Shown piece by piece: positions 1 through 59,320 of a stretch of 64,000 nucleotides of DNA. Numbering within the stretch: position 1 is the first letter of the stretch; each line of letters starts with the position of its first letter. Origin of the DNA: Acidimicrobiia bacterium (GTDB taxonomy: Bacteria > Actinomycetota > Acidimicrobiia > Acidimicrobiales > Poriferisodalaceae); NCBI GenBank assembly GCA_022822525.1, contig JAJEBN010000020.1:1-64000 (forward strand), in the 5' to 3' direction. The position numbers were made by a program, and so were the translations under genes. Below the pieces are notes generated by a model that saw only the letters and a program-made list of their open reading frames with translations, did no database searches and had not been told where the DNA came from.

Positions 1-834
1 CCCGTCCACGAGCGTCGGCGGGTCGGAGCCCTCCAAGATGTCGTCGCTGGGCTCGGTCCAGCTGTTCAGTGCGTACGCGAAGTCGGCCAGCGGGTCGCCG
101 AGGGTGGAGATCTCCCAGTCGAGCACGGCCTGCAGCTCGCCCGCGGGGTTGAACAGGCAGTTGTGCAGCCCGTAGTCGCCGTGCACCACCCGGGCGGGGC
201 CCTGGGTGGGCTTGCGCTCCTGCAGGAAGTCGTGCAGCTCGTGCACGACCGGCGTGTCGTAGGAGGCCGAGGGGGCCGATGCTGTCCACGAGCGGTACCA
301 CGTGCGGATCTGCCGACCGACGTAGTCCTCCTTCTTGCCGAGCTCGCCCAGCCCGACGTCGTCGGGATCCACCGAGTGCAGCGCCGCCAGTACGTCCATG
401 AACGACATGCCGACGTGTGCCCGGCCCTCGGCGGTCAGGTGCTCGCGGGCGTCGGCCGACTCGAACAGCGGCTTGCCCTCGACATAGCTCATGACGTAGA
501 AGTGCGCCCCGGTCACGTCGGGGCTCTCGCAGTAGCCGTACGCGATGGCAACGGGCACGCCGGTGGACCCGAGGCCGCTGATGATCGTGAACTCGCGGCC
601 CATGTCGTGGGCCTTGGGCAGCAGTTCGCCCATGGGCGGCCGGCGCACGACCGCTGTGGTGCCGTCGGCGGCGGTGAGCTTGTAGGTCAGGTTGCTGTGG
701 CCGCCTTCGAGCTGGGTCCAGTCGAACGGCGGCTCGAGACCTTCGACGTTCTCGCTGATCCACGCCTCGACGGCGGGCACGTCGTACCCGAGGACCCCAC
801 CAGCAACGGATGCGCCTACCGAAGCGTCGGCCAT
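1..834 (-). CDS. Phosphotransferase family protein (APH fold), 3' part cut by window edge
   Basis: Aminoglycoside-phosphotransferase-fold kinase of the ACAD10/11-like group, often found with acyl-CoA metabolism genes. The 278 visible residues hold the catalytic loop HGDYGLHN (His218-Asn225, Brenner-type HGDxxxxN) and the metal-binding stretch DWEISTLGDPLAD (from Asp239). The N-terminal nucleotide-binding part (GGHSNLTYKL, then VVRRPP) is also present. The start ATG at 832-834 follows a strong GGGAGGGA ribosome site. The C-terminus runs off the left edge. The true substrate (small hydroxylated molecule or hydroxyacyl-CoA) cannot be read from sequence; aminoglycoside resistance is unlikely for this subgroup. 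Confidence 0.88.
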   Translation of the reverse strand, partial: MADASVGASVAGGVLGYDVPAVEAWISENVEGLEPPFDWTQLEGGHSNLTYKLTAADGTTAVVRRPPMGELLPKAHDMGREFTIISGLGSTGVPVAIAYGYCESPDVTGAHFYVMSYVEGKPLFESADAREHLTAEGRAHVGMSFMDVLAALHSVDPDDVGLGELGKKEDYVGRQIRTWYRSWTASAPSASYDTPVVHELHDFLQERKPTQGPARVVHGDYGLHNCLFNPAGELQAVLDWEISTLGDPLADFAYALNSWTEPSDDILEGSDPPTLVDG

Positions 835-1013
835 CTTGTCCCTCCCTCGAACCGAACCGGCACCGGCCAGCATGTGGCCGGGCGCACGGTGCCTCGCCGT
901 GCGCCGCGCACACACTATGGCAATCGGCGGCGAGCGCTGCGGGCTGTGCATACCCGCGCCACGCGCCGGCAGAGCGTCGCGAACCCGCGACGGTGCGGCC
1001 CGACAGCGACCGG

Positions 1014-1019
1014 TAGCTT
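1014..1019 (+). promoter_or_regulatory. -10 box TAGCTT, leaderless-type
   Basis: TAGCTT ends 7 bases before the ATG of the decarboxylase gene, so transcription would begin at or next to the start codon. No ribosome site is visible. The same TANNNT arrangement recurs at many genes in this window. Confidence 0.45.
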
Positions 1020-1026
1020 CGCCGCC

Positions 1027-2505
1027 ATGGACCTCGCTGATTCAGACGTGCCCCCGGCATTGACGTCACCGCCGCAGCACATGACGCCTGAGGAGTTCCG
1101 GCGCCACGGTCGCGAGGTCATCGACTGGATCGCCGATTACTGGGAGCGCATCGAGTCGTTGCCGGTGGCCTCGACGGTGCAGCCCGGCGACATCCGGGAG
1201 CTGCTTCCCGTGGCGGCGCCAGAAGAACCCGAGCCGTTCGACAGCCTGCTCGCCGACCTTGAACGGGTGGTGGTGCCGGGCGTCACCCACTGGCAGCACC
1301 CGGGCTGGTTCGCCTACTTCCCGGCCAACAACTCGCCGCCCTCGGTGCTGGCCGACACGGTGTCGGCCGGTTTGGGGCTGATCGGGCTGCTGTGGTCGGC
1401 TTCGCCGGCGCTGACCGAGGTCGAGAGCCACATGCTGGACTGGCTCGTCGACCTGCTCGACCTGCCCGGCCACTGGAAGACCACGGCCGCCGGCGGCGGA
1501 GTCCTGCAGGGCAGCGCGTCAGATGCCACCCACGTCGCGCTCGTGGCGGCCCGCCACCGTGCCGCGGAGCGCAGCGGCCGGCCTGCGACCCAGATGGTTG
1601 CCTACACGTCGGCCCAGGCGCACAGCTCGGTGGAGAAGGGCGCCAACGTGGCCGGGTTCGGCCACGTGCGGCTCATCGAGGTCGACGAGCACCAGGCGAT
1701 GCGCCCAGATGCTCTGGCGTCAGCGGTCGAGGCGGATCTGGCCGCTGGCCTGGCACCCGCATTCGTGGGCTCGACCGTGGGAACTACCGGCACCACTGCG
1801 GTCGACCCCGTGCGAGCCATCGCTGAGGTCGCCATCGAGCACGGCCTGTGGCACCACGTCGATGCGGCCTATGCGGGCACGGCGATGATTTGTCCCGAGT
1901 TCCGCCACCACCAGGACGGCATCGAACTGGTGGACAGCTACGTGTTCAACCCGCACAAATGGATGATGGTGAACTTCGACTGCTCGGCGTTCTATGTCGC
2001 CGACAAGGCGGCGCTGACCGATGCGCTGTCGATCGACCCGCCGTACCTGCGCAACACCCAGAGCGACGCCGGCAACGTGATCGACTACCGCAACTGGCAG
2101 GTGCCGCTGGGGAGGCGCTTCCGGGCGCTCAAGCTGTGGTGGGTGCTGCGCAGCTACGGCGCATCGGGGATCCGCCAGATGGTGCGCCACCACGTCGCGA
2201 TGGCCCAGGAGTTTGCGCTGCGGCTCAGCGAGGACAGCCGGTTCGAGATCGTGGCCCCGCACCCGTTCTCGCTGGTGTGCTTCCGCCGGCGGGCTGCGGG
2301 CGACGGCGCTGCGGCGGCCGAGGCTGCCGACCGCGCCACCGACGCCGTCGCGGCAGCGGTGAACGACAGCGGCGTCGCCTACCTGACCCCGTCGAAGCTG
2401 GACGGACGCAGCATCATCCGCGTCGCAGTCGGCCAGTCGCGCACCGACCGCACCCAGATGGACCTGCTGTGGAAGGCGATCAGCGAGGCCGCCGTCGGGA
2501 CTTGA
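1027..2505 (+). CDS. Pyridoxal-phosphate-dependent group II amino-acid decarboxylase
   Basis: Aromatic-L-amino-acid-decarboxylase-like enzyme of 492 residues, normal for the family. It removes CO2 from an L-amino acid, probably aromatic, using PLP. The Schiff-base lysine lies in NPHKW (Lys311), the cofactor-binding Asp279 in HVDAAYAG and the ring-stacking histidine in SAQAHSS (His199). The N-terminus MTPEEFRRHGREVIDWIADY is typical of group II decarboxylases. The ATG at 1027 is chosen because homology starts just after it and a -10 box sits directly upstream; the open frame continues to 163 but that part is antisense to the phosphotransferase. Substrate preference (Trp, Tyr, Phe or Dopa) is not determined. 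Confidence 0.92.
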   Translation: MDLADSDVPPALTSPPQHMTPEEFRRHGREVIDWIADYWERIESLPVASTVQPGDIRELLPVAAPEEPEPFDSLLADLERVVVPGVTHWQHPGWFAYFPANNSPPSVLADTVSAGLGLIGLLWSASPALTEVESHMLDWLVDLLDLPGHWKTTAAGGGVLQGSASDATHVALVAARHRAAERSGRPATQMVAYTSAQAHSSVEKGANVAGFGHVRLIEVDEHQAMRPDALASAVEADLAAGLAPAFVGSTVGTTGTTAVDPVRAIAEVAIEHGLWHHVDAAYAGTAMICPEFRHHQDGIELVDSYVFNPHKWMMVNFDCSAFYVADKAALTDALSIDPPYLRNTQSDAGNVIDYRNWQVPLGRRFRALKLWWVLRSYGASGIRQMVRHHVAMAQEFALRLSEDSRFEIVAPHPFSLVCFRRRAAGDGAAAAEAADRATDAVAAAVNDSGVAYLTPSKLDGRSIIRVAVGQSRTDRTQMDLLWKAISEAAVGT

Positions 2506-2529
2506 CAGTGCCAGCCGGGGGTGCGGCTG

Positions 2530-3135
2530 TCACAATGCCGCAGCCTCGGGTTGCACGAGCGCTGAGCCAGCAGCAGCGGCGGCCGCTTCGGCCGGCATGC
2601 CGATGCCCAGGTAGCCCTCGATGCGGGCGAGCCGCTGCCCGTTGGCCGCCAGCTCCGCGCGCACTGCGCCGATCTTGTCGCCCAATCCCGTGCGCGCTGC
2701 GCCGATCTCGTCGCCCAACCCCGTGCGCACCGCGCCGATCTCGTCGCCCAACCCCGTGCGCACCGCGCCGATCTCGTCGCCCAATCCCGTGCGCACTGCG
2801 CCGATCTCCGCGCCCAACCCCGTGCGCACTGCGGCGATCTCGTCGCCCAATTCCGTGCGCACTGCGGCGATCTCCGCGCGCAATTCCGTGCGCACTGCGG
2901 CGATCTCCGCGCGCAATTCCGTGCGCACTGCGCCGATCTCCGCGCGCACTGCGGCGAACTCCTCGTGCATCTCGGTGCGCAGCGCGGCGATCTCCTCGCG
3001 CATCTCGGTGCGCAGCGCGGCGATCTCCTCGCGCATCTCCCTGCGCAGCCTCTCGTTGCTGCGCTGCTGGTGCCACACGATCGCCACGGCGGCGAGCACC
3101 ATGGTGAGCACTTGAGCGCTGGCGGCCACATCCAC
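2530..3135 (-). CDS. Membrane-anchored hendecad-repeat coiled-coil protein
   Basis: I do not recognise a named family. The 201-residue product has one hydrophobic N-terminal segment (about residues 8-21, VLTMVLAAVAIVW), then an uninterrupted helix built of 11-residue repeats (residues 34-161) and an alanine-rich tail. Typical units are MREEIAALRTE, LRAEIAAVRTE and LGDEIGAVRTG. Such a protein probably sits in the membrane with a long cytoplasmic or external coiled-coil rod and oligomerises. All three frames on this strand, and one on the other, are open here because of the repeat; this one is chosen because only it gives a membrane segment plus an amphipathic helix. It converges with the decarboxylase. 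Function unknown. Confidence 0.7.
   Translation of the reverse strand: MDVAASAQVLTMVLAAVAIVWHQQRSNERLRREMREEIAALRTEMREEIAALRTEMHEEFAAVRAEIGAVRTELRAEIAAVRTELRAEIAAVRTELGDEIAAVRTGLGAEIGAVRTGLGDEIGAVRTGLGDEIGAVRTGLGDEIGAARTGLGDKIGAVRAELAANGQRLARIEGYLGIGMPAEAAAAAAGSALVQPEAAAL
2653..3036 (-). repeat. 33-bp tandem repeat array (eleven units plus one 21-bp unit)
   Basis: Inside the coiled-coil gene. Eleven units of 33 bases encode 11-residue repeats. After the third comes a single 21-base unit (residues 67-73, IGAVRTE). Units nearest the C-terminus (LGDEIGAVRTG type) are nearly identical, which points to recent unequal duplication. N-terminal units have diverged to MREEIAALRTE. Confidence 0.9.
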
Positions 3136-3200
3136 ATTGTAAGCCTGCCATCGAGACGGCAGCCGTTCAACTGAATTAATCCAAAAGTACCGAAATCACC

Positions 3201-4283
3201 TCAAGAGGCTGAGCCCAGCGCGGCCAGCAGGCGGTCGTTCTGGGCGGGAGTGCCCAGGCTGATGCGCACGCCCTCGCCTTCGAACGGGCGGGTCACCAGG
3301 CCCTGCTTCTCGAGACGGACGAACAGCTCCATCGCCCCGCCGCCGACCGGCAGGTACACGAAGTTCGCCTGGCTCGGCACGATCGGCCAGCCCAGCTCGG
3401 CCATCGCGGCGCTGACCCGGTCGCGCTCGGCCAAGATGGCGGCAACACGTTCTTCCAGCTCCGTGCTGGCTTGCGGCTCGAGCGAGGCCAGCGCCGCGAT
3501 CTGGGCGATCCCGCTGACGATGAACGGCAGCGCCACCTTGTCGAGTGCCCCGATGACGTCGGGGTGCCCGACGCCGTAGCCGACTCGCAGGTTGGCCAAG
3601 CCGTACGCCTTGGAGAAGGTCCGCAGCACCAGGGCGTTGGGGTGCGCGGGCAGCACCGTTTCGATCGGGTCGGCCACGGCGGGGTCGGTGACGAATTCCC
3701 GGTAGGCCTCGTCGATCACCACGATCACGTCGGAGGGCACGGCCGCGAGCAGGCCCTGCAACTCTGCGGTCGTGCAGACCGTGCCGGTGGGGTTGTTCGG
3801 CGTGGAGAGCACGACGAGCTTGGTGCGGTCTGTCACTGCAGCCGTGACGCCGTCGAGGTCGAACGCGTGGTCGACCAGCGGCACCGTCACGGCCTGGGCG
3901 CCTGAGATCGCGCAGAACACCGGGTGCACCTCGAATGAGCGCCAGGGGTAGACGACCTCGTCGCCGGGATCGACATAGGAAGCGAAGAGCTGCTGCAGCA
4001 CTCCCACCGAACCGGAGCCGACCGTGACCTCGTCGAGCTCCACTCCGTGCCGGTCTGCCAGCGCCTCACGCACCTGGGTGCAGCGATGGTCGGGATAGCG
4101 GTTCATGCCCAGGGCGGCGTCGGACACCGCTCGGGCCACTGAGGGCAGCGGATCGTTGGCGTTCTCGTTGGATGCCAGCTTGATGGCCTCGGCCAGGTTG
4201 TGCTCCGCCTCGGCCTGTGCCGCGGATCGACCCGGCTTGTACTGCGGAAGGCCCTCCACCGCCGCTCTCGGTCGTCCGATCAT
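3201..4283 (-). CDS. hisC: Histidinol-phosphate aminotransferase
   Basis: PLP-dependent class I/II aminotransferase of 360 residues, converting imidazole-acetol phosphate and glutamate to histidinol phosphate in histidine synthesis. Family features: ASNENANDPLPSV near the N-terminus, NNPTGT (163-168), DEAYREF (191-197) and the PLP lysine in SKAYGLANLRVGYG (Lys225). The ATG at 4283 follows a good GGAGGAGA ribosome site. No other histidine genes are nearby, so this may be a stand-alone HisC or a paralogue acting on another amino acid such as phenylalanine; HisC and Pat proteins are hard to separate by sequence. Confidence 0.88.
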   Translation of the reverse strand: MIGRPRAAVEGLPQYKPGRSAAQAEAEHNLAEAIKLASNENANDPLPSVARAVSDAALGMNRYPDHRCTQVREALADRHGVELDEVTVGSGSVGVLQQLFASYVDPGDEVVYPWRSFEVHPVFCAISGAQAVTVPLVDHAFDLDGVTAAVTDRTKLVVLSTPNNPTGTVCTTAELQGLLAAVPSDVIVVIDEAYREFVTDPAVADPIETVLPAHPNALVLRTFSKAYGLANLRVGYGVGHPDVIGALDKVALPFIVSGIAQIAALASLEPQASTELEERVAAILAERDRVSAAMAELGWPIVPSQANFVYLPVGGGAMELFVRLEKQGLVTRPFEGEGVRISLGTPAQNDRLLAALGSAS

Positions 4284-4381
4284 GCGCTCGCTCTCCTCCG
4301 AGACGAGGCCCGCCGACGGCTCGCAGCGGTGCCCGGCGGCAAACTAGCGGCCCCGACCCCCACAGGCGGCGGCTGGCCCGG

Positions 4382-4397
4382 CCGCCCGCACGGGCGG
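4382..4397 (-). terminator. Possible hairpin after the deacetylase gene
   Basis: CCGCCC and GGGCGG (4382-4387 and 4392-4397) can pair with a 4-base loop, 18 bases past the stop of the deacetylase gene. There is no T-run, so its role as a terminator is only a guess. Confidence 0.3.
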
Positions 4398-4415
4398 TGA
4401 TCGGCGAGGTGCCTG

Positions 4416-5324
4416 CTACAGGCGACGGTTGGCGTCGTCCCCCGGAGTGGCGACCGAGCGGAATTGATCGGCGACCTGGTCCATCGTGGCGAAGGTCACC
4501 CCCGGCCGCGACGCCATGTGATCGATGAGGCGCTCGAGCATCAGCATCCGGCTGCCACGCCCGATGCACTGGGGATGCATGGTGAGCACGAACACCCCGC
4601 TGCCGACCCGCTCGTAGAGGTAGTCGAACTCCGCCGACCACACGTCATAGACGTGATCGGGTGTGCGCAGCCCTTGCACTGTGGGCCCGTCGTAGCTGAA
4701 GTACGGCCAGTCGTCGAGGATCCAGTCGAACGGCAGCTGCACCAGGTCGACCTCGTCGCCGAACCGGTGCGGCCCGTCCGTCGTGGGCACGTCGCCGAGC
4801 CGGCACCAGGTGGGCGCGTAGTCGTTGCGCGCCATGGAGGAGTCGTAGGAGAAGCCGTGCTCGATGAGCAGGCTGATCCAACGGTCGCCGCAGTTGCCGC
4901 CCGGTACCCGGTGCCCCACGGGCGGGCTGCCTGAGAGTTGTTCGAGGCAGTCCATGGAGCGCATCAGGATGGCTCGCTCGTCGGCTTCGTCTCGCTTCGA
5001 CGAGGGTGCCTCGTGGCAGTACCCGTGGTAGCCCACCTCGTGCCCGTCGGAAGCCACCCGGGCGCACACCTCGCCGAAGGTGTCGATGGTGTGGCCGGGG
5101 ATGAACCATGTGGACGGGAGCGAGCGCTCATCGAGCAGGTCGAGCAGCCGGTGCGCGCCGATCGACGCGAACTCGCCCCGAGCGGTCAGGTTGGGCGACC
5201 GTGACCCCCGCGGGCCGGTCCAGATCGAGATCGCATCGAAGTCGAAGCTCAGACAGACCGTGACCGGGCCATGAGCGCCGTTGGAGGCCCCGTTGGATGC
5301 AGAAGCGCCGTGTGACAAGCTCAT
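4416..5324 (-). CDS. Polysaccharide deacetylase family (NodB-homology) protein
   Basis: Carbohydrate-esterase-4-type metal hydrolase, 302 residues. The NodB signature begins with SFDFDA (catalytic/metal Asp28 and Asp30). The zinc histidines follow as HGYCHE (His100, His104). TWFIPGHTI, GHEVGYHG and HRVPGG complete the usual motif series. No signal peptide is seen, so it is probably cytosolic, as for the deacetylase-like amidases (PuuE-type allantoinases) in this superfamily. The first 20 residues are Ser/Gly/Asn-rich and disordered. A TAGGGT box lies 6 bases before the ATG. Real substrate unknown: it could be an N-acetyl sugar or a small cyclic amide. Confidence 0.85.
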   Translation of the reverse strand: MSLSHGASASNGASNGAHGPVTVCLSFDFDAISIWTGPRGSRSPNLTARGEFASIGAHRLLDLLDERSLPSTWFIPGHTIDTFGEVCARVASDGHEVGYHGYCHEAPSSKRDEADERAILMRSMDCLEQLSGSPPVGHRVPGGNCGDRWISLLIEHGFSYDSSMARNDYAPTWCRLGDVPTTDGPHRFGDEVDLVQLPFDWILDDWPYFSYDGPTVQGLRTPDHVYDVWSAEFDYLYERVGSGVFVLTMHPQCIGRGSRMLMLERLIDHMASRPGVTFATMDQVADQFRSVATPGDDANRRL

Positions 5325-5330
5325 CTTCGG

Positions 5331-5336
5331 ACCCTA
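5331..5336 (-). promoter_or_regulatory. -10 box TAGGGT, leaderless-type
   Basis: Read on the minus strand, TAGGGT ends 6 bases before the deacetylase ATG. It faces the divergent CoA-transferase promoter at 5414-5419. Confidence 0.5.
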
Positions 5337-5413
5337 CTGAACGCCCGTCCGAGTCCGCCACAGCAAGCACAGCGACCCGCTCGTCGGCCGGGTGTGCCGG
5401 GGCCGTCGGGCGG

Positions 5414-5419
5414 TACCGT
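5414..5419 (+). promoter_or_regulatory. -10 box TACCGT, leaderless-type
   Basis: TACCGT ends 6 bases before the ATG at 5426 and supports that start over the longer open frame, which would begin inside the divergent gene. Confidence 0.5.
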
Positions 5420-5425
5420 GATCCG

Positions 5426-7798
5426 ATGCCTGCCCCGGCCGGCGGAGCCGCCGAGACCGAATCGCCGCCGCTCGCGGGGATGCGTGTGCTGGAGCTGGCC
5501 ACCGGCATCGCCGGACCGTACGCCGGTCGCCTCTTGGCGGGTGCGGGGGCGACCGTGGTCAAGGCGGAACCGCCCGGCGGGGACCCTGCTCGGCACCAGC
5601 CGGTCGACGACGTCCCGCTGGCACCGGGTGAGCTGAGCCCGCTGTTCGTGCATCTGAATGCGGGCAAGCTGAACTGCGCCGCCGACAGCGTCGAGCAGTC
5701 GTGGCCCGAGGTGGTGATCGCCAGCGAGACGCTGGCCGGGCTTGCCGGCGGGCCGTGGGATCCCCAGCGGATGGCCGCCCGTGCGGCAGCGGGCGAACGC
5801 GTGCCCAAGCTCGTCACGGTGACGGCCTGGGGTGCGGACGCCGACGACCCCGGTGTCATCGCAGACGAGCTGCTGGTGCAGACCGCCACGGGCTTTCTGG
5901 GCTTCAACGGCGACGAGGGCGCCGAGCCGCTGCGCCTTCCGGGCTGGCAGGCCCAGTACTGCGCCGGCGGTCTTGCCGCTTGGGCTGCACACCTCATCCG
6001 GCGACGGACCGAGACGCACATGGATGTGTCGTGGCTGGGGGCGCTGCTGACCGCCGTCGAGCTCTGCTACTGCGATTCGCTGCACTGCCAGCGGCGCCGG
6101 CCGCTGGTGGGGCCCCACCCTCCGACGGCGTACCCGTCGGGTGCGATCCGCTGTGCGGACGGCTTCGTGTGCCCGGGCTCGATCCGGCGGGACGACTGGG
6201 AGATGCAGTGCCTGCATCTCGGCATGCCGGAGTGGATCGACGATCCCGAGCTGAGCCACCGCCACCGCCGGGTCCGCCACATCGACAAGATCCGCGAGGT
6301 CATCGAGCCGTGGTACGCCGCCCGCACCAAGCGAGAGCTGTTCCAGTTCGCGCTCGAGACGCCATGGGCCGTCGGCATGGTGATGACGCCGCTGGATGCC
6401 CTGGCAGACGAGCATCTCGCCCAACGCGGCTTCCTCGGCGAGGTCGAGACTCCAGCGGCGACCGCCTTGGCGCCCATCGGGCCCTTTGCCGCACCAGGCC
6501 TGCCCGTGCCCGGTCAACGAGTTCGCGATCAGGGCGCTGACACAGTCCCGGCCGCCGATGCCCCCACGATGGCGCTGCGACCGGCGCGTGCGCTGCGGGT
6601 GATCGAGATGACCATCGCCTGGGCTGGGCCGTACATCGGCAACTTGCTGACACCGCTCGGCATCGACGTCATCAAGATCGAGGCGCAGAACCCCTTCGAC
6701 GGCTTCCGCACCCAGCGGCCCTATGACCATGGCATGGCGCCCGGCCTCGAACACCTCGTGCACGACAACCGCTTCTACGAGGCGGGCGGGCATTTCAACG
6801 CCGTCAACAAGGGCAAGCGCGACTGCGTGGTCACGCTCGCCACGCCGGAGGGCCGCGCCGCCTTCATGGAGCTGGTGCGCAACTGCGATGGGTTGGTCGC
6901 CAACTTCTCGGCCCACGTGCTGCCCCAGCTCGGGCTCGACTTCGAGACGCTGGCCGAGGTCAATCCCCGCATCGTGCTGGTGCGCATGCCGGCGTTCGGC
7001 GTCGACGGGCCGTATGCGGGCGCGGTGGGCTTCGGCTCGATCATCGAGGCCATGGGCGGGTTGGGTCACCGGCAGGGCTACGAGCACGAGGGTGCCCGCA
7101 TCTCCAACATCTACTTCCCTGACCCCATCGCCGGCATCACCGCCGGATTCGCCCTGCTCAGCGGCCTGCACCACGCCGAGCGCACCGGCCACGGCATAGA
7201 GATCGACGTCTCCCAGCAAGAGGGAACCTGGCAGCACAGCGGCGAAGCGCTCGTGCTGGCCTCCACAGCAGGCCGAGACATCGGCCGCATGGGAAACCGC
7301 GAACCCGGCGCCGTCTGGAGCGGGTTCATTCAAGGCACCGACGGCTGGCTCGCCGTCATCGCCGACGGATCGGCCGACCCGTCCTCCGGGACCAACGCCC
7401 TCAACGTGATCGAGGGCCTGCTCGACGAGATCGAGCACAACCGCGGCGAGCCCGTCCGAACCAGGGCAGACCTGCAGGCCGTGCTGCACGCCGCCGGCGC
7501 CCGCACAGAGTTCTGCTGGGACCCATGGACCGCACCCGAGCACCGGCGCGTCGCCGAACGCATCGAGCTGGTCGATCACCCAGTAACAGGCCCCATGCGC
7601 CACATAGCGTCCCCGTTCACCCTCGACGGAACCCGCCCAGCCCAAGCAGGCCCCTCCCCCCTCTTCGACCAGCACACCGACCACGTCATGGCCGAAGCAG
7701 CTCGGCTCTCCCCCACCGCGATCGAGAGCCTCCGAGCCAACGGCCACATCGGAGGCAAGCTCCCCCCACCCGCCGAGCTCGGCTTCGTCTACGACTGA
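5426..7798 (+). CDS. Double-length CaiB/BaiF (class III) CoA-transferase
   Basis: Family III CoA transferase moving CoA between carboxylic acids, 790 residues instead of the usual 380-420. Two homologous halves are visible. Half one opens with RVLELATGIAGPYAGRLLAG and KAEPPGGDPAR. Half two (from about residue 390) opens with RVIEMTIAWAGPYIGNLLTP and KIEAQNPFDGFR, then NKGKRDCVVTLATPEGR. Each half therefore carries the CoA-binding N-terminal fold. The second half is the more complete, so the first may be structural or bind a different partner. Such fusions probably fold as an intramolecular version of the interlocked homodimer. It lies upstream of epoxide hydrolase and acyl-CoA synthetase genes. 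Substrate unknown. Confidence 0.88.
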   Translation: MPAPAGGAAETESPPLAGMRVLELATGIAGPYAGRLLAGAGATVVKAEPPGGDPARHQPVDDVPLAPGELSPLFVHLNAGKLNCAADSVEQSWPEVVIASETLAGLAGGPWDPQRMAARAAAGERVPKLVTVTAWGADADDPGVIADELLVQTATGFLGFNGDEGAEPLRLPGWQAQYCAGGLAAWAAHLIRRRTETHMDVSWLGALLTAVELCYCDSLHCQRRRPLVGPHPPTAYPSGAIRCADGFVCPGSIRRDDWEMQCLHLGMPEWIDDPELSHRHRRVRHIDKIREVIEPWYAARTKRELFQFALETPWAVGMVMTPLDALADEHLAQRGFLGEVETPAATALAPIGPFAAPGLPVPGQRVRDQGADTVPAADAPTMALRPARALRVIEMTIAWAGPYIGNLLTPLGIDVIKIEAQNPFDGFRTQRPYDHGMAPGLEHLVHDNRFYEAGGHFNAVNKGKRDCVVTLATPEGRAAFMELVRNCDGLVANFSAHVLPQLGLDFETLAEVNPRIVLVRMPAFGVDGPYAGAVGFGSIIEAMGGLGHRQGYEHEGARISNIYFPDPIAGITAGFALLSGLHHAERTGHGIEIDVSQQEGTWQHSGEALVLASTAGRDIGRMGNREPGAVWSGFIQGTDGWLAVIADGSADPSSGTNALNVIEGLLDEIEHNRGEPVRTRADLQAVLHAAGARTEFCWDPWTAPEHRRVAERIELVDHPVTGPMRHIASPFTLDGTRPAQAGPSPLFDQHTDHVMAEAARLSPTAIESLRANGHIGGKLPPPAELGFVYD

Positions 7799-54920: not shown

Positions 54921-56054
54921 ATGACCGACGGCGGTACTGGCAGTACGACCAACGGCAAGCTCACCTCGCTGTTCTCCGAGTGCGGCCAGAGTCCGTGGCT
55001 GGACAACCTGCGTCGCGGCTGGATCACAGGAGGAGAGCTGGAGACTTGGGTGGAGCGCGGCATACGTGGCCTCACCTCGAACCCGTCGATCTTCCAGAAG
55101 GCCATCGAGTCGTCGGTCGACTACGACGAGCAGTTCGGCGACCTGGTACGCGGCGGCATCGGGGTCGACGATGCCTACTGGCAGCTCGTCACCAGCGACA
55201 TCTGCGGGGCGCTGGCCGCGCTCGAACCGGTGCATGCGGTCTCGGGCGGAACCGATGGATTCGTATCGGTCGAGGTTGATCCGTCGCTGGCACATGACAC
55301 CGAGGCCACCGTGGAGGCGGCCCGGGCCCTGCACCGGGGCATCGCGCGACCGAACCTGATGGTGAAGATCCCCGGCACGGTCGAGGGCCTGCCTGCCATC
55401 CGCCAGATGATCTCCGAGGGTCACAGCATCAACGTGACGCTGATTTTCTCGGTGGCCCGGTACGTGCAGGTGGCAGAGGCCTACATCTCCGGCCTCGAAG
55501 ACCGGGTTGACGCCGGTGCGGCTGATCTGTCGGATGTCGCGAGCGTGGCCTCGTTCTTCGTCAGCCGCACCGACACCGAGGTCGACCGTCGCCTCGACGC
55601 CGTGGGCACTACCAGCGCACTGGCACTGCGCGGCCGAACGGCGGTAGCCCAGGCCCAGGCCGCCTACGGCCGCTTCGAGGAGAGCTTCAGCGGTCCTCGC
55701 TGGGATCGGCTCGCGGCGCTCGGCGCACAGGTGCAGCGCCCGCTGTGGGCATCGACGAGCACGAAGAATCCCGCGTATCCCGACACGCTGTATGTCGACG
55801 AGCTCATCGGGCCGCACACCGTGAACACCATGCCTGACGCCACCCTCGATGCCTTCTGCGACCACGGCAAGCTGCGTCGCACGATCGATGCCGACCAATC
55901 CGCTGCCCGCTATGTGCTGGACGCAGTGTCAGCGCATGGCATCGACCTCGACGATGTCGCCGGCGTGCTCGAAGCGCAGGGCGTCGCAGCATTCACGAAG
56001 AGTTTCGACGAGCTGCTGGTGTCGCTGCAGACCAAAGCTGACTCGCTCGCCTGA
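54921..56054 (+). CDS. tal: Transaldolase
   Basis: Transaldolase of 377 residues (long actinobacterial/cyanobacterial type), moving dihydroxyacetone units in the pentose phosphate pathway. The Schiff-base lysine is Lys149 in LMVKIPGT; GIRGLTSNPSIFQKAI, INVTLIFSVARYVQVAEAY and ASTSTKNPAYPDTLYVDEL are conserved. GAAAGGAC ribosome site before the ATG. It is probably co-expressed with tkt. Confidence 0.96.
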   Translation: MTDGGTGSTTNGKLTSLFSECGQSPWLDNLRRGWITGGELETWVERGIRGLTSNPSIFQKAIESSVDYDEQFGDLVRGGIGVDDAYWQLVTSDICGALAALEPVHAVSGGTDGFVSVEVDPSLAHDTEATVEAARALHRGIARPNLMVKIPGTVEGLPAIRQMISEGHSINVTLIFSVARYVQVAEAYISGLEDRVDAGAADLSDVASVASFFVSRTDTEVDRRLDAVGTTSALALRGRTAVAQAQAAYGRFEESFSGPRWDRLAALGAQVQRPLWASTSTKNPAYPDTLYVDELIGPHTVNTMPDATLDAFCDHGKLRRTIDADQSAARYVLDAVSAHGIDLDDVAGVLEAQGVAAFTKSFDELLVSLQTKADSLA

Positions 56055-56130
56055 CGGCTCACCGGTCACCTTCGCTCCCCTGACGGCTCACCGCTCACAT
56101 TCGCTCGCCTGACGGCTCGCCGGGCTCACG
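56043..56130 (+). repeat. Three tandem 29-bp repeats spanning the tal stop codon
   Basis: Units at 56043-56071, 56072-56100 and 56101-56130 each contain CTGACGGCTC. The first includes the tal stop (TGA at 56052-56054). The first two differ at 3 positions; the third is one base longer. Confidence 0.8.
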
Positions 56131-56151
56131 CGCTCGCTGGGGCCTCCCAGC

Positions 56152-56733: not shown

Positions 56734-59252
56734 CCATCATCGAACCGTCGCACACCATCGAGGACCCGGCGGCCAACGGCGCACCCGACAACGGCATCGC
56801 CGTGGCACCGCAGCCCACGACCGGGTCGCTGACGCTCGCCAACCTGGCACTGGCCGAGCTGGCCGAGCGCGCCGCTGAGGTGCGCGACCGATCCTTCGGC
56901 ACACGCGTCACCTACAGCCCCAAGGTGTTCATCCCGCTGACGATGCTGTGCCGCGACAAATGCGGCTACTGCACGTTTGCCCAACCGCCGGCCCGGCTCG
57001 ACTCGCCGTACCTGACGCCCGAACAGGTGCTGGAAATCGCCACCAGCGGCGCACGGGCCGGCTGCCACGAGGCGCTCTTCACGCTGGGCGAGCGTCCTGA
57101 GCTGCGCTACCCGGCGGCGGCGGACTGGCTGCGCACCCACGGCTGGGACTCCACCGTCCACTACCTGGTCGAGATGTCCCGGCTCGTGCGCGATGAGACC
57201 GGGCTGCTCCCCCACGCCAATCCGGGTGCCATGACGGCCGGGGAGCTGGCGTCGCTGCGCGAGGTCGCACCGAGCCAGGGGATGATGATCGAGTCGCTGA
57301 ACCCCCACCTCGACTGCCACCGGGGTTCGCCCGACAAGGAACCGGCCCGGCGCCTGGCAACCCTCGAAGCCGCCGGCGAGCTGGCGATCCCGTACACCAC
57401 CGGCATCCTCGTCGGCATCGGCGAGTCGCTGGCGGATCGGCTGGCAGCGCTGGAGGCCATCGCGGCGAGCCACGCCCGCTGGGGTCACATCCAGGAAGTC
57501 ATCGTCCAGAACTTCCTGCCCAAGGCAGGCACGTCCATGCACAACATGCCGGCCTGCCCGCCTGACGAGTACGCGCAGGCGATCGCGCTGGCACGCCTGA
57601 TCCTGCCTGCCGACATTCACCTGCAGGCGCCGCCGAACCTCTCGGACGACTTCGGCGGGCTGCTCGACGTCGGCATCGACGACTGGGGCGGTGTCTCACC
57701 GGTCACTGCCGACCATGTGAATCCCGAGCGCCCGTGGCCGGCACTGGATCGCCTGCGGGAGGTCACCGAGGCGCGAGCGTTCACGCTGGCGCCCCGGCTG
57801 ACGATCTACCCCGAGTTCGCACTCGATCCGCAGCGCTGGCTGGACGAGGGGAATCGATTTTCGGTGATGGACCGGTCCGACGCAGAGGGACTCGGCCGCG
57901 ACGACCCCGGCAGCCAGATGCCTGAACGGACGATGGAGAACCTCGACGCCGGCTCCGGCGCGGACGTGCTCGTTGCCGACGAGAACTCGACCCAGTGGTA
58001 CTCCGGCGGCGCAGGTCACTACCCGACCGACATCATGAGCGGTCGCTCGCACGCCCGCGGCGCAGTGCGGGAGGTGCTCGACGGGGTGATGGCCGGTCAG
58101 CAAGTCGGCCATGAGGAGATCGTCACGCTCTTCTCCGCACGCGGCCCCGAGGTGGTCGCCATCGGCGAAGTGGCCGACGAGCTGCGCCGTGAAGCTGTCG
58201 GCGACATTGTGACCTGGGTGCACAATCGCAACATCAACTACACAAACGTCTGCACGTTCAAGTGCAAGTTCTGCGGCTTCTCCAAGGGTCCCCTGTCGCT
58301 GAATCTGCGGGGCACGCCCTACATGCTGACGCTGGCAGACATCCAGGAACGGGTGATCGAGGCCGCCGAGCTGGGCGCCACCGAGGTGACGCTGCAAGGC
58401 GGCATCCACCCCAGCTTCGACGGCGACTACTACATCGACGTGTGCCGGGCCATCCATGACGTCGTTCCCGACATGCACCTGCACGGGTTCACGGCCCTCG
58501 AAGTCATCGAAGGCGCCAAGCGGCTCGGCGAATCTCTCGTCGACTATCTCATGCGGCTCAAGGAGGCAGGGCTGAAGTCGCTGCCCGGCACCGCGGCAGA
58601 GATCCTCGACGACTCGGTGCGGGCCGTCCTGTGCCCCGACAAGATCAACACTGCCGAGTGGCTGGAGTGCCATGAGGCAGCGCACGCTGTGGGTCTTCAC
58701 TCGAATATCACGATCATGTTCGGCTCGATCGAGCATCCGGAGAACTGGGCCAACCACATCGTCGCCACCCGCGAGCTGCAGAAGCGCACAGGCGGGTTCA
58801 CCGAGTGGGTACCGCTGCCGTTCGTGCACATGGCCAGCCCGATCTACCTGCGCAAGGGCGCCCGGCGGGGTCCGACGTTCCGGGAGACCCTCCTGATGCA
58901 CGCGGTGCCGCGCATCGCCTACCGGGGGCTCATCGACAACGTGCAGGTGTCCTGGGTGAAGATCGGTCCTCCGGGCGCGCAGCAGATCCTGCGGGCAGGC
59001 GCCAACGACCTGGGCGGCACGCTCATGGACGAGAACATCTCCCGGGCTGCGGGAGCGCAGCACGGGCAGGGTCTCGCCGAGCAGGACTTCCGCAATATCG
59101 CCGAGCCTGTGGGCCGCCGCGTTCGCCAGCGGCTCACCGGCTACGAGAACGCGGACGGGGCCCCTGAGGTTCGCAGCCGGACGCTGCGCCCCACCGACAA
59201 CGCCACCGACCGCAAGCTCATCCCGCTCGAATCGCTCGGCAGTCGCGTCTAG
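56730..59252 (+). CDS. fbiC: FO synthase, fused CofG-CofH (F420 biosynthesis)
   Basis: Makes the deazaflavin FO, the chromophore of F420, from tyrosine and a ribitylated uracil; 840 residues. Two radical-SAM domains: CofG half with Cys74/78/81 (MLCRDKCGYCTFA) and CofH half from about residue 490 with Cys508/512/515 (CTFKCKFCGFSKG). Later CofH marks are QGGIHPSFDGDYY and MFGSIEHPENW. Start GTG overlaps the hxlR stop (GTGA), so translation is coupled. FbiC fusion is usual in actinobacteria. Its stop codon lies within a tandem duplication. Confidence 0.96.
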   Translation: MTIIEPSHTIEDPAANGAPDNGIAVAPQPTTGSLTLANLALAELAERAAEVRDRSFGTRVTYSPKVFIPLTMLCRDKCGYCTFAQPPARLDSPYLTPEQVLEIATSGARAGCHEALFTLGERPELRYPAAADWLRTHGWDSTVHYLVEMSRLVRDETGLLPHANPGAMTAGELASLREVAPSQGMMIESLNPHLDCHRGSPDKEPARRLATLEAAGELAIPYTTGILVGIGESLADRLAALEAIAASHARWGHIQEVIVQNFLPKAGTSMHNMPACPPDEYAQAIALARLILPADIHLQAPPNLSDDFGGLLDVGIDDWGGVSPVTADHVNPERPWPALDRLREVTEARAFTLAPRLTIYPEFALDPQRWLDEGNRFSVMDRSDAEGLGRDDPGSQMPERTMENLDAGSGADVLVADENSTQWYSGGAGHYPTDIMSGRSHARGAVREVLDGVMAGQQVGHEEIVTLFSARGPEVVAIGEVADELRREAVGDIVTWVHNRNINYTNVCTFKCKFCGFSKGPLSLNLRGTPYMLTLADIQERVIEAAELGATEVTLQGGIHPSFDGDYYIDVCRAIHDVVPDMHLHGFTALEVIEGAKRLGESLVDYLMRLKEAGLKSLPGTAAEILDDSVRAVLCPDKINTAEWLECHEAAHAVGLHSNITIMFGSIEHPENWANHIVATRELQKRTGGFTEWVPLPFVHMASPIYLRKGARRGPTFRETLLMHAVPRIAYRGLIDNVQVSWVKIGPPGAQQILRAGANDLGGTLMDENISRAAGAQHGQGLAEQDFRNIAEPVGRRVRQRLTGYENADGAPEVRSRTLRPTDNATDRKLIPLESLGSRV

Positions 59253-59320
59253 CGACTGCGCAAGCAGCACAGCAGTCGCGTCGAGCGACTGCGCAAAGAG
59301 CACAGCAGCCGCGTCGAGCC
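59239..59320 (+). repeat. 33-bp tandem repeat spanning the fbiC stop, with hairpin arms
   Basis: Units 59239-59271 and 59272-59304 match at 30 of 33 bases, then a partial third. Each full unit can fold a hairpin with arms CAGTCGC/GCGACTG and a 5-base loop (59240-59258, 59273-59291). The fbiC stop (TAG, 59250-59252) lies at the first loop; the matching codon in unit two is GAG. Confidence 0.8.

What the first reader, a model, noticed from the sequence alone, without database searches (positions are those of the whole stretch)
2530..3135. Hendecad-repeat membrane rod with one 7-residue unit
Eleven 11-residue units are interrupted by a single 7-residue unit (residues 67-73). Hendecads give near-straight or right-handed coiled coils and one heptad insert changes the phase, so the rod should have a defined kink or register shift. 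C-terminal units are almost identical in DNA, indicating ongoing copy-number change. Family unknown.
Basis: seen in the sequence. Interest (0 to 1): 0.5.

Follow-up and report, generated by a model that had tools for sequence, protein, structure and literature searches.

The report
Length-variable membrane-anchored coiled-coil protein family
A small bacterial membrane protein carries a stretchable helical rod built from 11- and 7-residue units; it belongs to an unnamed protein family of a few related genera whose two ends stay the same while the rod length changes greatly between relatives.

Summary
ORF 2530-3135 (-), 201 aa, has an N-terminal membrane helix, eleven 11-residue units and one 7-residue unit, with near-identical DNA in the later units. 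Relatives support the reading frame. The 'defined kink' is not supported: heptads recur at varying places in relatives, the syntenic relative has none, 157 of 160 repeat spacings are 4, 7, 11, 15 or 22 (hydrophobic stripe kept in phase), and AlphaFold2 gives one unbroken helix.

No Pfam or NCBIfam model reaches its cut-off, yet this is a real family: a conserved membrane segment ending IW(H/N)QQ, a rod of 13-141 residues, and a cap RLARIEG(F/Y)LGIG that contains the known R-h-x-x-h-E trimerization motif. It was found in 39 of 397 genomes (5 of 203 genera) sampled from the order. The syntenic gene of a congener lacks 8 hendecads and the heptad. The whole gene is missing from this locus in 8 of 10 congeners, and two other loci also differ in occupancy. 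Most copies share a promoter-like element.

Best explanation: a membrane-tethered trimeric spacer that holds a conserved tip at an evolvable distance. Trimerization, topology and partner are inferred, not shown.

The parts
2530..3135 (-). whole gene, 201 aa plus stop, GTG start
   Evidence: frame test
3073..3129 (-). membrane segment, about residues 3-21 (VAASAQVLTMVLAAVAIVW)
   Evidence: best 19-residue Kyte-Doolittle mean 2.1; conserved in A1 and A2
2950..3048 (-). hendecads 1-3, residues 30-62
2929..2949 (-). single heptad VRAEIGA, residues 63-69
   Evidence: absent from the syntenic relative L033
2665..2928 (-). hendecads 4-11, residues 70-157, near-identical in DNA
2599..2664 (-). degenerate unit and cap, residues 158-179 (VRAELAANGQRLARIEGYLGIG)
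2617..2634 (-). R-h-x-x-h-E trimerization motif RLARIE, residues 168-173, the only one in the protein
   Evidence: motif definition from PMC3653964 passages
3166..3186 (-). promoter-like element TTTTGGATTAATTCAGTTGAA, 30 nt before the GTG
   Evidence: PWM score 18.0 against a maximum of 14.93 in 345 shuffles; not matched by the stricter pattern
2503..2532 (.). inverted repeat TGACAG...CTGTCA that spans both convergent stop codons; possible shared terminator
   Evidence: read directly; no terminator scan was run

Best explanation
The gene encodes a membrane-anchored coiled-coil spacer. An N-terminal helix sits in the membrane, a continuous helix projects from it (most likely into the cytoplasm), and three chains are held in parallel register by the RLARIE motif at the far end. 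The conserved tip (R)LARIEG(F/Y)LGIG(M/I)P is presented at a distance set by the number of 7- and 11-residue units. Units are gained or lost by slippage, tolerated when the hydrophobic stripe stays in phase, so length can evolve without disturbing either end. Shown: the anatomy, the frame, the conserved ends, the quantised length, the length difference at the same locus, and gene presence/absence at three loci. Inferred: trimer, topology, distance function, and an unidentified partner for the tip.
For: Two ends conserved, middle elastic: A1 (13 sequences) and A2 (28); rods of 13-141 residues, 61 distinct. Rod length minus 13 is a sum of 7s and 11s in 55 of 61 rods (51 of 57 longer than 13; random shifts of up to 5 residues gave mean 27.2 and at most 41 in 20,000 trials). 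Spacings between LR/VR dipeptides are 4, 7, 11, 15 or 22 in 157 of 160 cases. The cap is R-h-x-x-h-E, which specifies parallel trimers in passages of PMC3653964 and stabilises the trimeric FapF coil in passages of PMC6173795. Of 32 ORFs carrying the membrane pattern, 30 keep R-h-x-x-h-E, 4 of them as RLSRIE. AlphaFold2: one helix 2-176. Topology: in 50 WHQQR-type ORFs mean Lys+Arg is 3.48 after and 1.10 before the membrane segment.
Against: No experiment, no multimer model and no named partner. [quoted passage not shown] Six of 61 rods break the 7/11 rule (remainders 8, 41, 48) and three spacings are 8. The length quantisation partly follows from slippage of 33-bp units, and the rods share ancestry, so the control is not one for selection. 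Cap conservation is partly built in: the collection scan used the cap as one of its two search patterns. The later units are 27% glycine, which weakens helices. In 18 WNQQQ-type ORFs the charge gives no topology (1.61 before, 1.67 after), and N-side counts were made without trimming to the start codon.
Confidence: 0.45

Rival explanations
1. The rod is not a coiled coil: its 11-mer repeats lie flat on the membrane as a long amphipathic helix, as in apolipoproteins and perilipins.
For: The best Pfam match of the window protein is Apolipoprotein (E 5e-13), and 6 of the 10 solved chains found are apolipoprotein E (best E 0.0012).
Against: 49.6 bits against a Pfam cut-off of 90. Only about 3 of 11 positions per unit are strongly hydrophobic, there is no proline in the rod, and R-h-x-x-h-E sits at its end. 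Of 28 repeat-poor members none matches Apolipoprotein at E 0.01.
Confidence: 0.12
2. Same architecture, but the rod faces outside, as a short surface stalk that contacts the animal host or neighbouring cells.
For: The second paralogous group in these genomes (type II, A3) has Arg-rich stretches before its membrane segment, which suggests an outside rod there. Genera with many copies include Candidatus Poriferisocius; that these live in sponges is recalled and read from the name.
Against: The type I proteins with a WHQQR juncture have their positive charges after the membrane segment; the window protein has none before it and Arg 25, 29, 31 and 32 after it.
Confidence: 0.15
3. The gene is a dispersing, weakly constrained or selfish gene-plus-promoter cassette with no cellular role.
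For: Presence/absence at three loci (2, 5 and 4 of 10 genomes); no shared neighbours seen in the four loci inspected; an upstream element shared between loci; a probable decayed copy (L180).
Against: Omega 0.09-0.48 in 10 pairs and strong conservation of both ends across four families mean selection on the protein. No transposase or terminal repeat was identified, though none was searched for systematically.
Confidence: 0.12
4. A phage or defence component.
For: PHROG 9415 (unknown function) matches the window repeats at E 2.4e-24; N-terminal membrane helix plus coiled coil recalls phage Rz (weak Pfam matches).
Against: The repeat-poor members L044, L081 and L105 do not match PHROG 9415, so the match is to the repeats. 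No match of L044 in 50,697 phage records; no confirmed relative among 64 candidate stretches of viral contigs. PADLOC matches are weak (best E 2.8e-4). Loci inspected sit between metabolic genes.
Confidence: 0.04

Closest known systems
R-h-x-x-h-E trimeric coiled coils (coronin-1, FapF and others; PMC3653964 and PMC6173795, passages)
   Same: the six-residue motif, at the end of a helix that continues the core stripe
   Different: here it caps a membrane-anchored 7/11 rod and is followed by a conserved LGIG(M/I)P tip; the oligomeric state is untested
NadA3, trimeric adhesin with mixed heptads and undecads (PMC6191539, passages)
   Same: 11- and 7-residue repeats in one continuous trimeric coil
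   Different: NadA is an outer-membrane autotransporter with a head domain; this protein has an N-terminal membrane helix and no head
CCDC90-like / MCUR1 family (PF07798)
   Same: membrane-anchored coiled coil; weak match to the rod (26.2 bits)
   Different: score below the cut-off of 33.5; the family's head domain and C-terminal anchor (recalled) are absent here, where the anchor is N-terminal
Type II group in the same genus (A3)
   Different: long N-terminal region, different membrane segment, LDH(A/T)ERLARIE cap, tandem gene arrays

Membership tests
the family defined here (type I) | membrane segment ending IW(H/N)QQ near the N-terminus | tested here: met
the family defined here (type I) | cap RLARIEG(F/Y)LGIG | tested here: met
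the family defined here (type I) | upstream promoter-like element | tested here: inconclusive
   PWM score 18.0, above all 345 shuffles, but G000 has no match to the stricter pattern at up to 1 mismatch
parallel trimeric coiled coil | R-h-x-x-h-E motif | tested here: met
   once, residues 168-173
parallel trimeric coiled coil | trimer in solution or in a structure | not testable with these tools
   only monomers can be modelled here
CCDC90-like (PF07798) | score above the Pfam cut-off | tested here: not met
   26.2 against 33.5 bits
CCDC90-like (PF07798) | C-terminal membrane anchor (recalled) | tested here: not met
   anchor at residues 3-21
Apolipoprotein A1/A4/E (PF01442) | score above the Pfam cut-off | tested here: not met
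   49.6 against 90 bits
Apolipoprotein A1/A4/E (PF01442) | lipid binding of the repeats | not testable with these tools
   needs biochemistry
trimeric autotransporter adhesins | C-terminal membrane anchor domain (recalled) | tested here: not met
   C-terminus after the cap is an Ala-rich tail of 22 residues; no such Pfam match among the 25 shown

The most novel reading that the evidence does not exclude
An evolvable molecular ruler that spreads as a gene-plus-promoter cassette: copies of one membrane-tethered trimer are placed at unrelated loci, each with its own rod length (about 13 to 141 residues between the two conserved ends), so that one conserved tip is held at different, tunable distances from the membrane.
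Probability: 0.2. Interest if true: 0.6.

Novelty: new variant of a known kind. Interest (0 to 1): 0.4.

Why it matters
Natural series in which the two ends of a coiled coil stay fixed while the middle changes only in phase-preserving steps are useful for learning how coiled-coil length evolves. Here the same locus has 3 units in one species and 11 plus a heptad in another, and shortest forms with almost no rod exist, so the question whether length itself is under selection becomes directly testable. It also names a family that annotation libraries lack.

Tried and rejected
Kink at the heptad: rejected as a defined feature, see the first-reader field. Another reading frame: tested, not supported. 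Fold search: Foldseek against the PDB gave one match at E 8.9, uninformative for a single helix. Sequence search of solved structures gave only weak coiled-coil or amphipathic matches. NCBIfam gave nothing below E 0.006. Defence and phage libraries gave only repeat-driven or weak matches. Conserved neighbours: gene order was inspected at four other loci by ORF calling; the gene products there were not run through a family library, so 'metabolic' is a reading of two search hits and of the window's hisC and decarboxylase. Literature: searches listed no paper on this family; they cover only open-licence PMC papers.

Rows dropped before counts: the rod count uses 64 rods found by a regular expression in L062-L130, plus the window and L035; loci whose cap is not RLAxxE-like, is masked or is frameshifted (for example L064, L094, L101, L111, L118) were left out. 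A2 was built from 28 of 63 references, chosen for short rods. L101 contains masked bases.

Full report
Observation. The ORF at 2530-3135 (-) encodes 201 residues: membrane segment about 3-21, hendecads at 30-62 (three) and 70-157 (eight), a heptad at 63-69, then a degenerate unit, the cap RLARIEGYLGIG and an Ala-rich tail. It lies between hisC (3201-4283, -; NCBIfam PRK03321 above cut-off) and a PLP-dependent decarboxylase (ending at 2505, +; PF00282). The array scores 418 in Tandem Repeats Finder.

Reading frame. Open frames exist on both strands across the array. Relatives settle it: in 10 pairs the third codon position changes most often in each, with omega 0.09-0.48, and in the 5 ungapped pairs the annotated frame always has the lowest omega, narrowly so for L044/L045.

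The family. A search of 61 related genomes (own included) matched 21 at E 0.001. Besides generic rods, a distinct group shared both ends of the window protein and differed in the middle. In the genus I found 14 such genes in 8 of 11 genomes; one search was not exhaustive for weak matches. Alignment A1 (13 sequences) has the cap residues R168-G174, L176-G179 and W21, Q24, R25 invariant. The genome-collection scan gave 69 loci: 61 labelled Acidimicrobiia, Acidimicrobiaceae, Acidimicrobiales or Poriferisocius, 7 labelled only 'bacterium', and one Gemmatimonadetes (L079, on a 4.3-kb contig; its protein closely resembles L100 of an Acidimicrobiaceae bin, so mis-binning or transfer is possible). The genus itself is Acidimicrobiia by contig match: G006:C86 is 11,917 bases, as is JAJDZE010000031.1. 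A profile of 28 short members matched 39 of 397 genomes of the order, in 5 of 203 genera and four families, and 2 of 396 genomes drawn from the phylum, both of the same order. Only up to 13 candidates per genome were scored and weaker rows may be other rods, so copy numbers there are not reliable.

Names in libraries. No Pfam or NCBIfam model reached its cut-off for the window protein. PHROG 9415, of unknown function, matches the repeats at E 2.4e-24, but not the repeat-poor members L044, L081 and L105.

Length rule. Between the membrane juncture and the cap, 61 distinct rods range from 13 to 141 residues; the window's is the longest. Length minus 13 is a sum of 7s and 11s in 55 of 61; the six exceptions leave 8, 41 or 48. 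Spacings between LR/VR dipeptides are 4 (21), 7 (40), 11 (91), 15 (2), 22 (3) and 8 (3). Passages of PMC4786415 explain why 7/2, 11/3 and 15/4 fit a continuous coiled coil, and passages of PMC6191539 describe heptads and undecads in one trimeric crystal structure. The control does not account for shared ancestry, and slippage of 33-bp units produces multiples of 11 without selection; the heptads and 4-residue steps are the better evidence for selection on phase.

Cap. RLARIE is R-h-x-x-h-E, the parallel-trimer motif (passages). Because the cap served as a search pattern, I counted ORFs that carry the membrane pattern: of 32, 26 have the exact cap pattern, 4 have RLSRIE, and 2 (L101, masked; L118, apparently frameshifted) lack it. 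Conservation continues past the motif (LGIG, then usually M/I and P), which trimerization alone would not require; I read this as a tip for a partner (inference).

Structure. AlphaFold2 with A1 gives one helix, residues 2-176, mean pLDDT 89.8, 97-99 around the heptad, falling after 170. It is a monomer model.

Length change at one locus. L033 (G006) is syntenic: 95.3% identity over window 2-2762 and 87.9% over 2938-6825. Its protein has 106 residues and three hendecads, 95 residues fewer, equal to 8 hendecads and the heptad. Since the window rod is the longest of 61, expansion in the window lineage is likelier than loss (inference). Both genomes are fragmented assemblies, so unit counts may be off.

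Presence and absence. Between hisC and the decarboxylase, 8 of 10 congeners have only 20-66 bp, against 695 bp in G000 and 410 in G006 (G001 gave no hisC hit). At a second locus (beside an enzyme gene used as query) the gene is present in 5 of 10, and at a third in 4 of 10. The window genome is empty at both. The own-genome search found two further rod proteins (C18, C29), which are type II.

Upstream element. A motif wTTTCATgwaATTnnRTTGCa lies mostly 30-40 nt before type I starts. With a PWM trained on the same 69 upstream stretches (some from the same locus), 57 exceed the best of 345 mononucleotide shuffles; four score below zero. In 916,203 bases of fetched, partly overlapping sequence, 47 distinct hits scored 19 or more: 28 labelled type I automatically, 17 more lie at type I loci on my reading, 2 do not. 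A stricter pattern with up to one mismatch hit 7 places in 9 genomes (about 31 Mb) with none in the control. Six precede type I matches, by 25-29 bp in five cases and 147 bp in one; four of the 9 genomes, the window's own included, had no hit. The promoter role is inferred.

Verdict. A real, taxon-restricted, unnamed family with an unusual elastic middle; ordinary coiled-coil physics. Function beyond 'tethered spacer' is open. Scores: interest 0.4, best explanation 0.45.

Noticed in passing
upstream of type I genes; window 3166-3186: Promoter-like element shared by dispersed copies of the family; it may mark a small regulon or travel with the gene.
   Followed up: partly
L180 (G006:C116), at 1501: The seventh element hit is followed by a few bases resembling the start of the window gene and then a stop: probably a decayed copy.
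   Followed up: partly
L052, L051, L049, L050: Type II rod genes occur in clusters, 5 within 12 kb in L052 and 3 in L051, with rods that also vary in length.
   Followed up: partly
window 2503-2532: Inverted repeat TGACAG...CTGTCA covering both convergent stop codons.
   Followed up: no
window 3129-3141: TACAAT directly before GTGGATGTG may be a -10 box of a leaderless transcript starting at codon 3; not tested.
   Followed up: no
window 56043-56137 and 59239-59319: Two further tandem arrays, of 29-bp and 33-bp units.
   Followed up: no
L079: Family member on a contig labelled Gemmatimonadetes, very like L100 from Acidimicrobiaceae: mis-binning or transfer.
   Followed up: no
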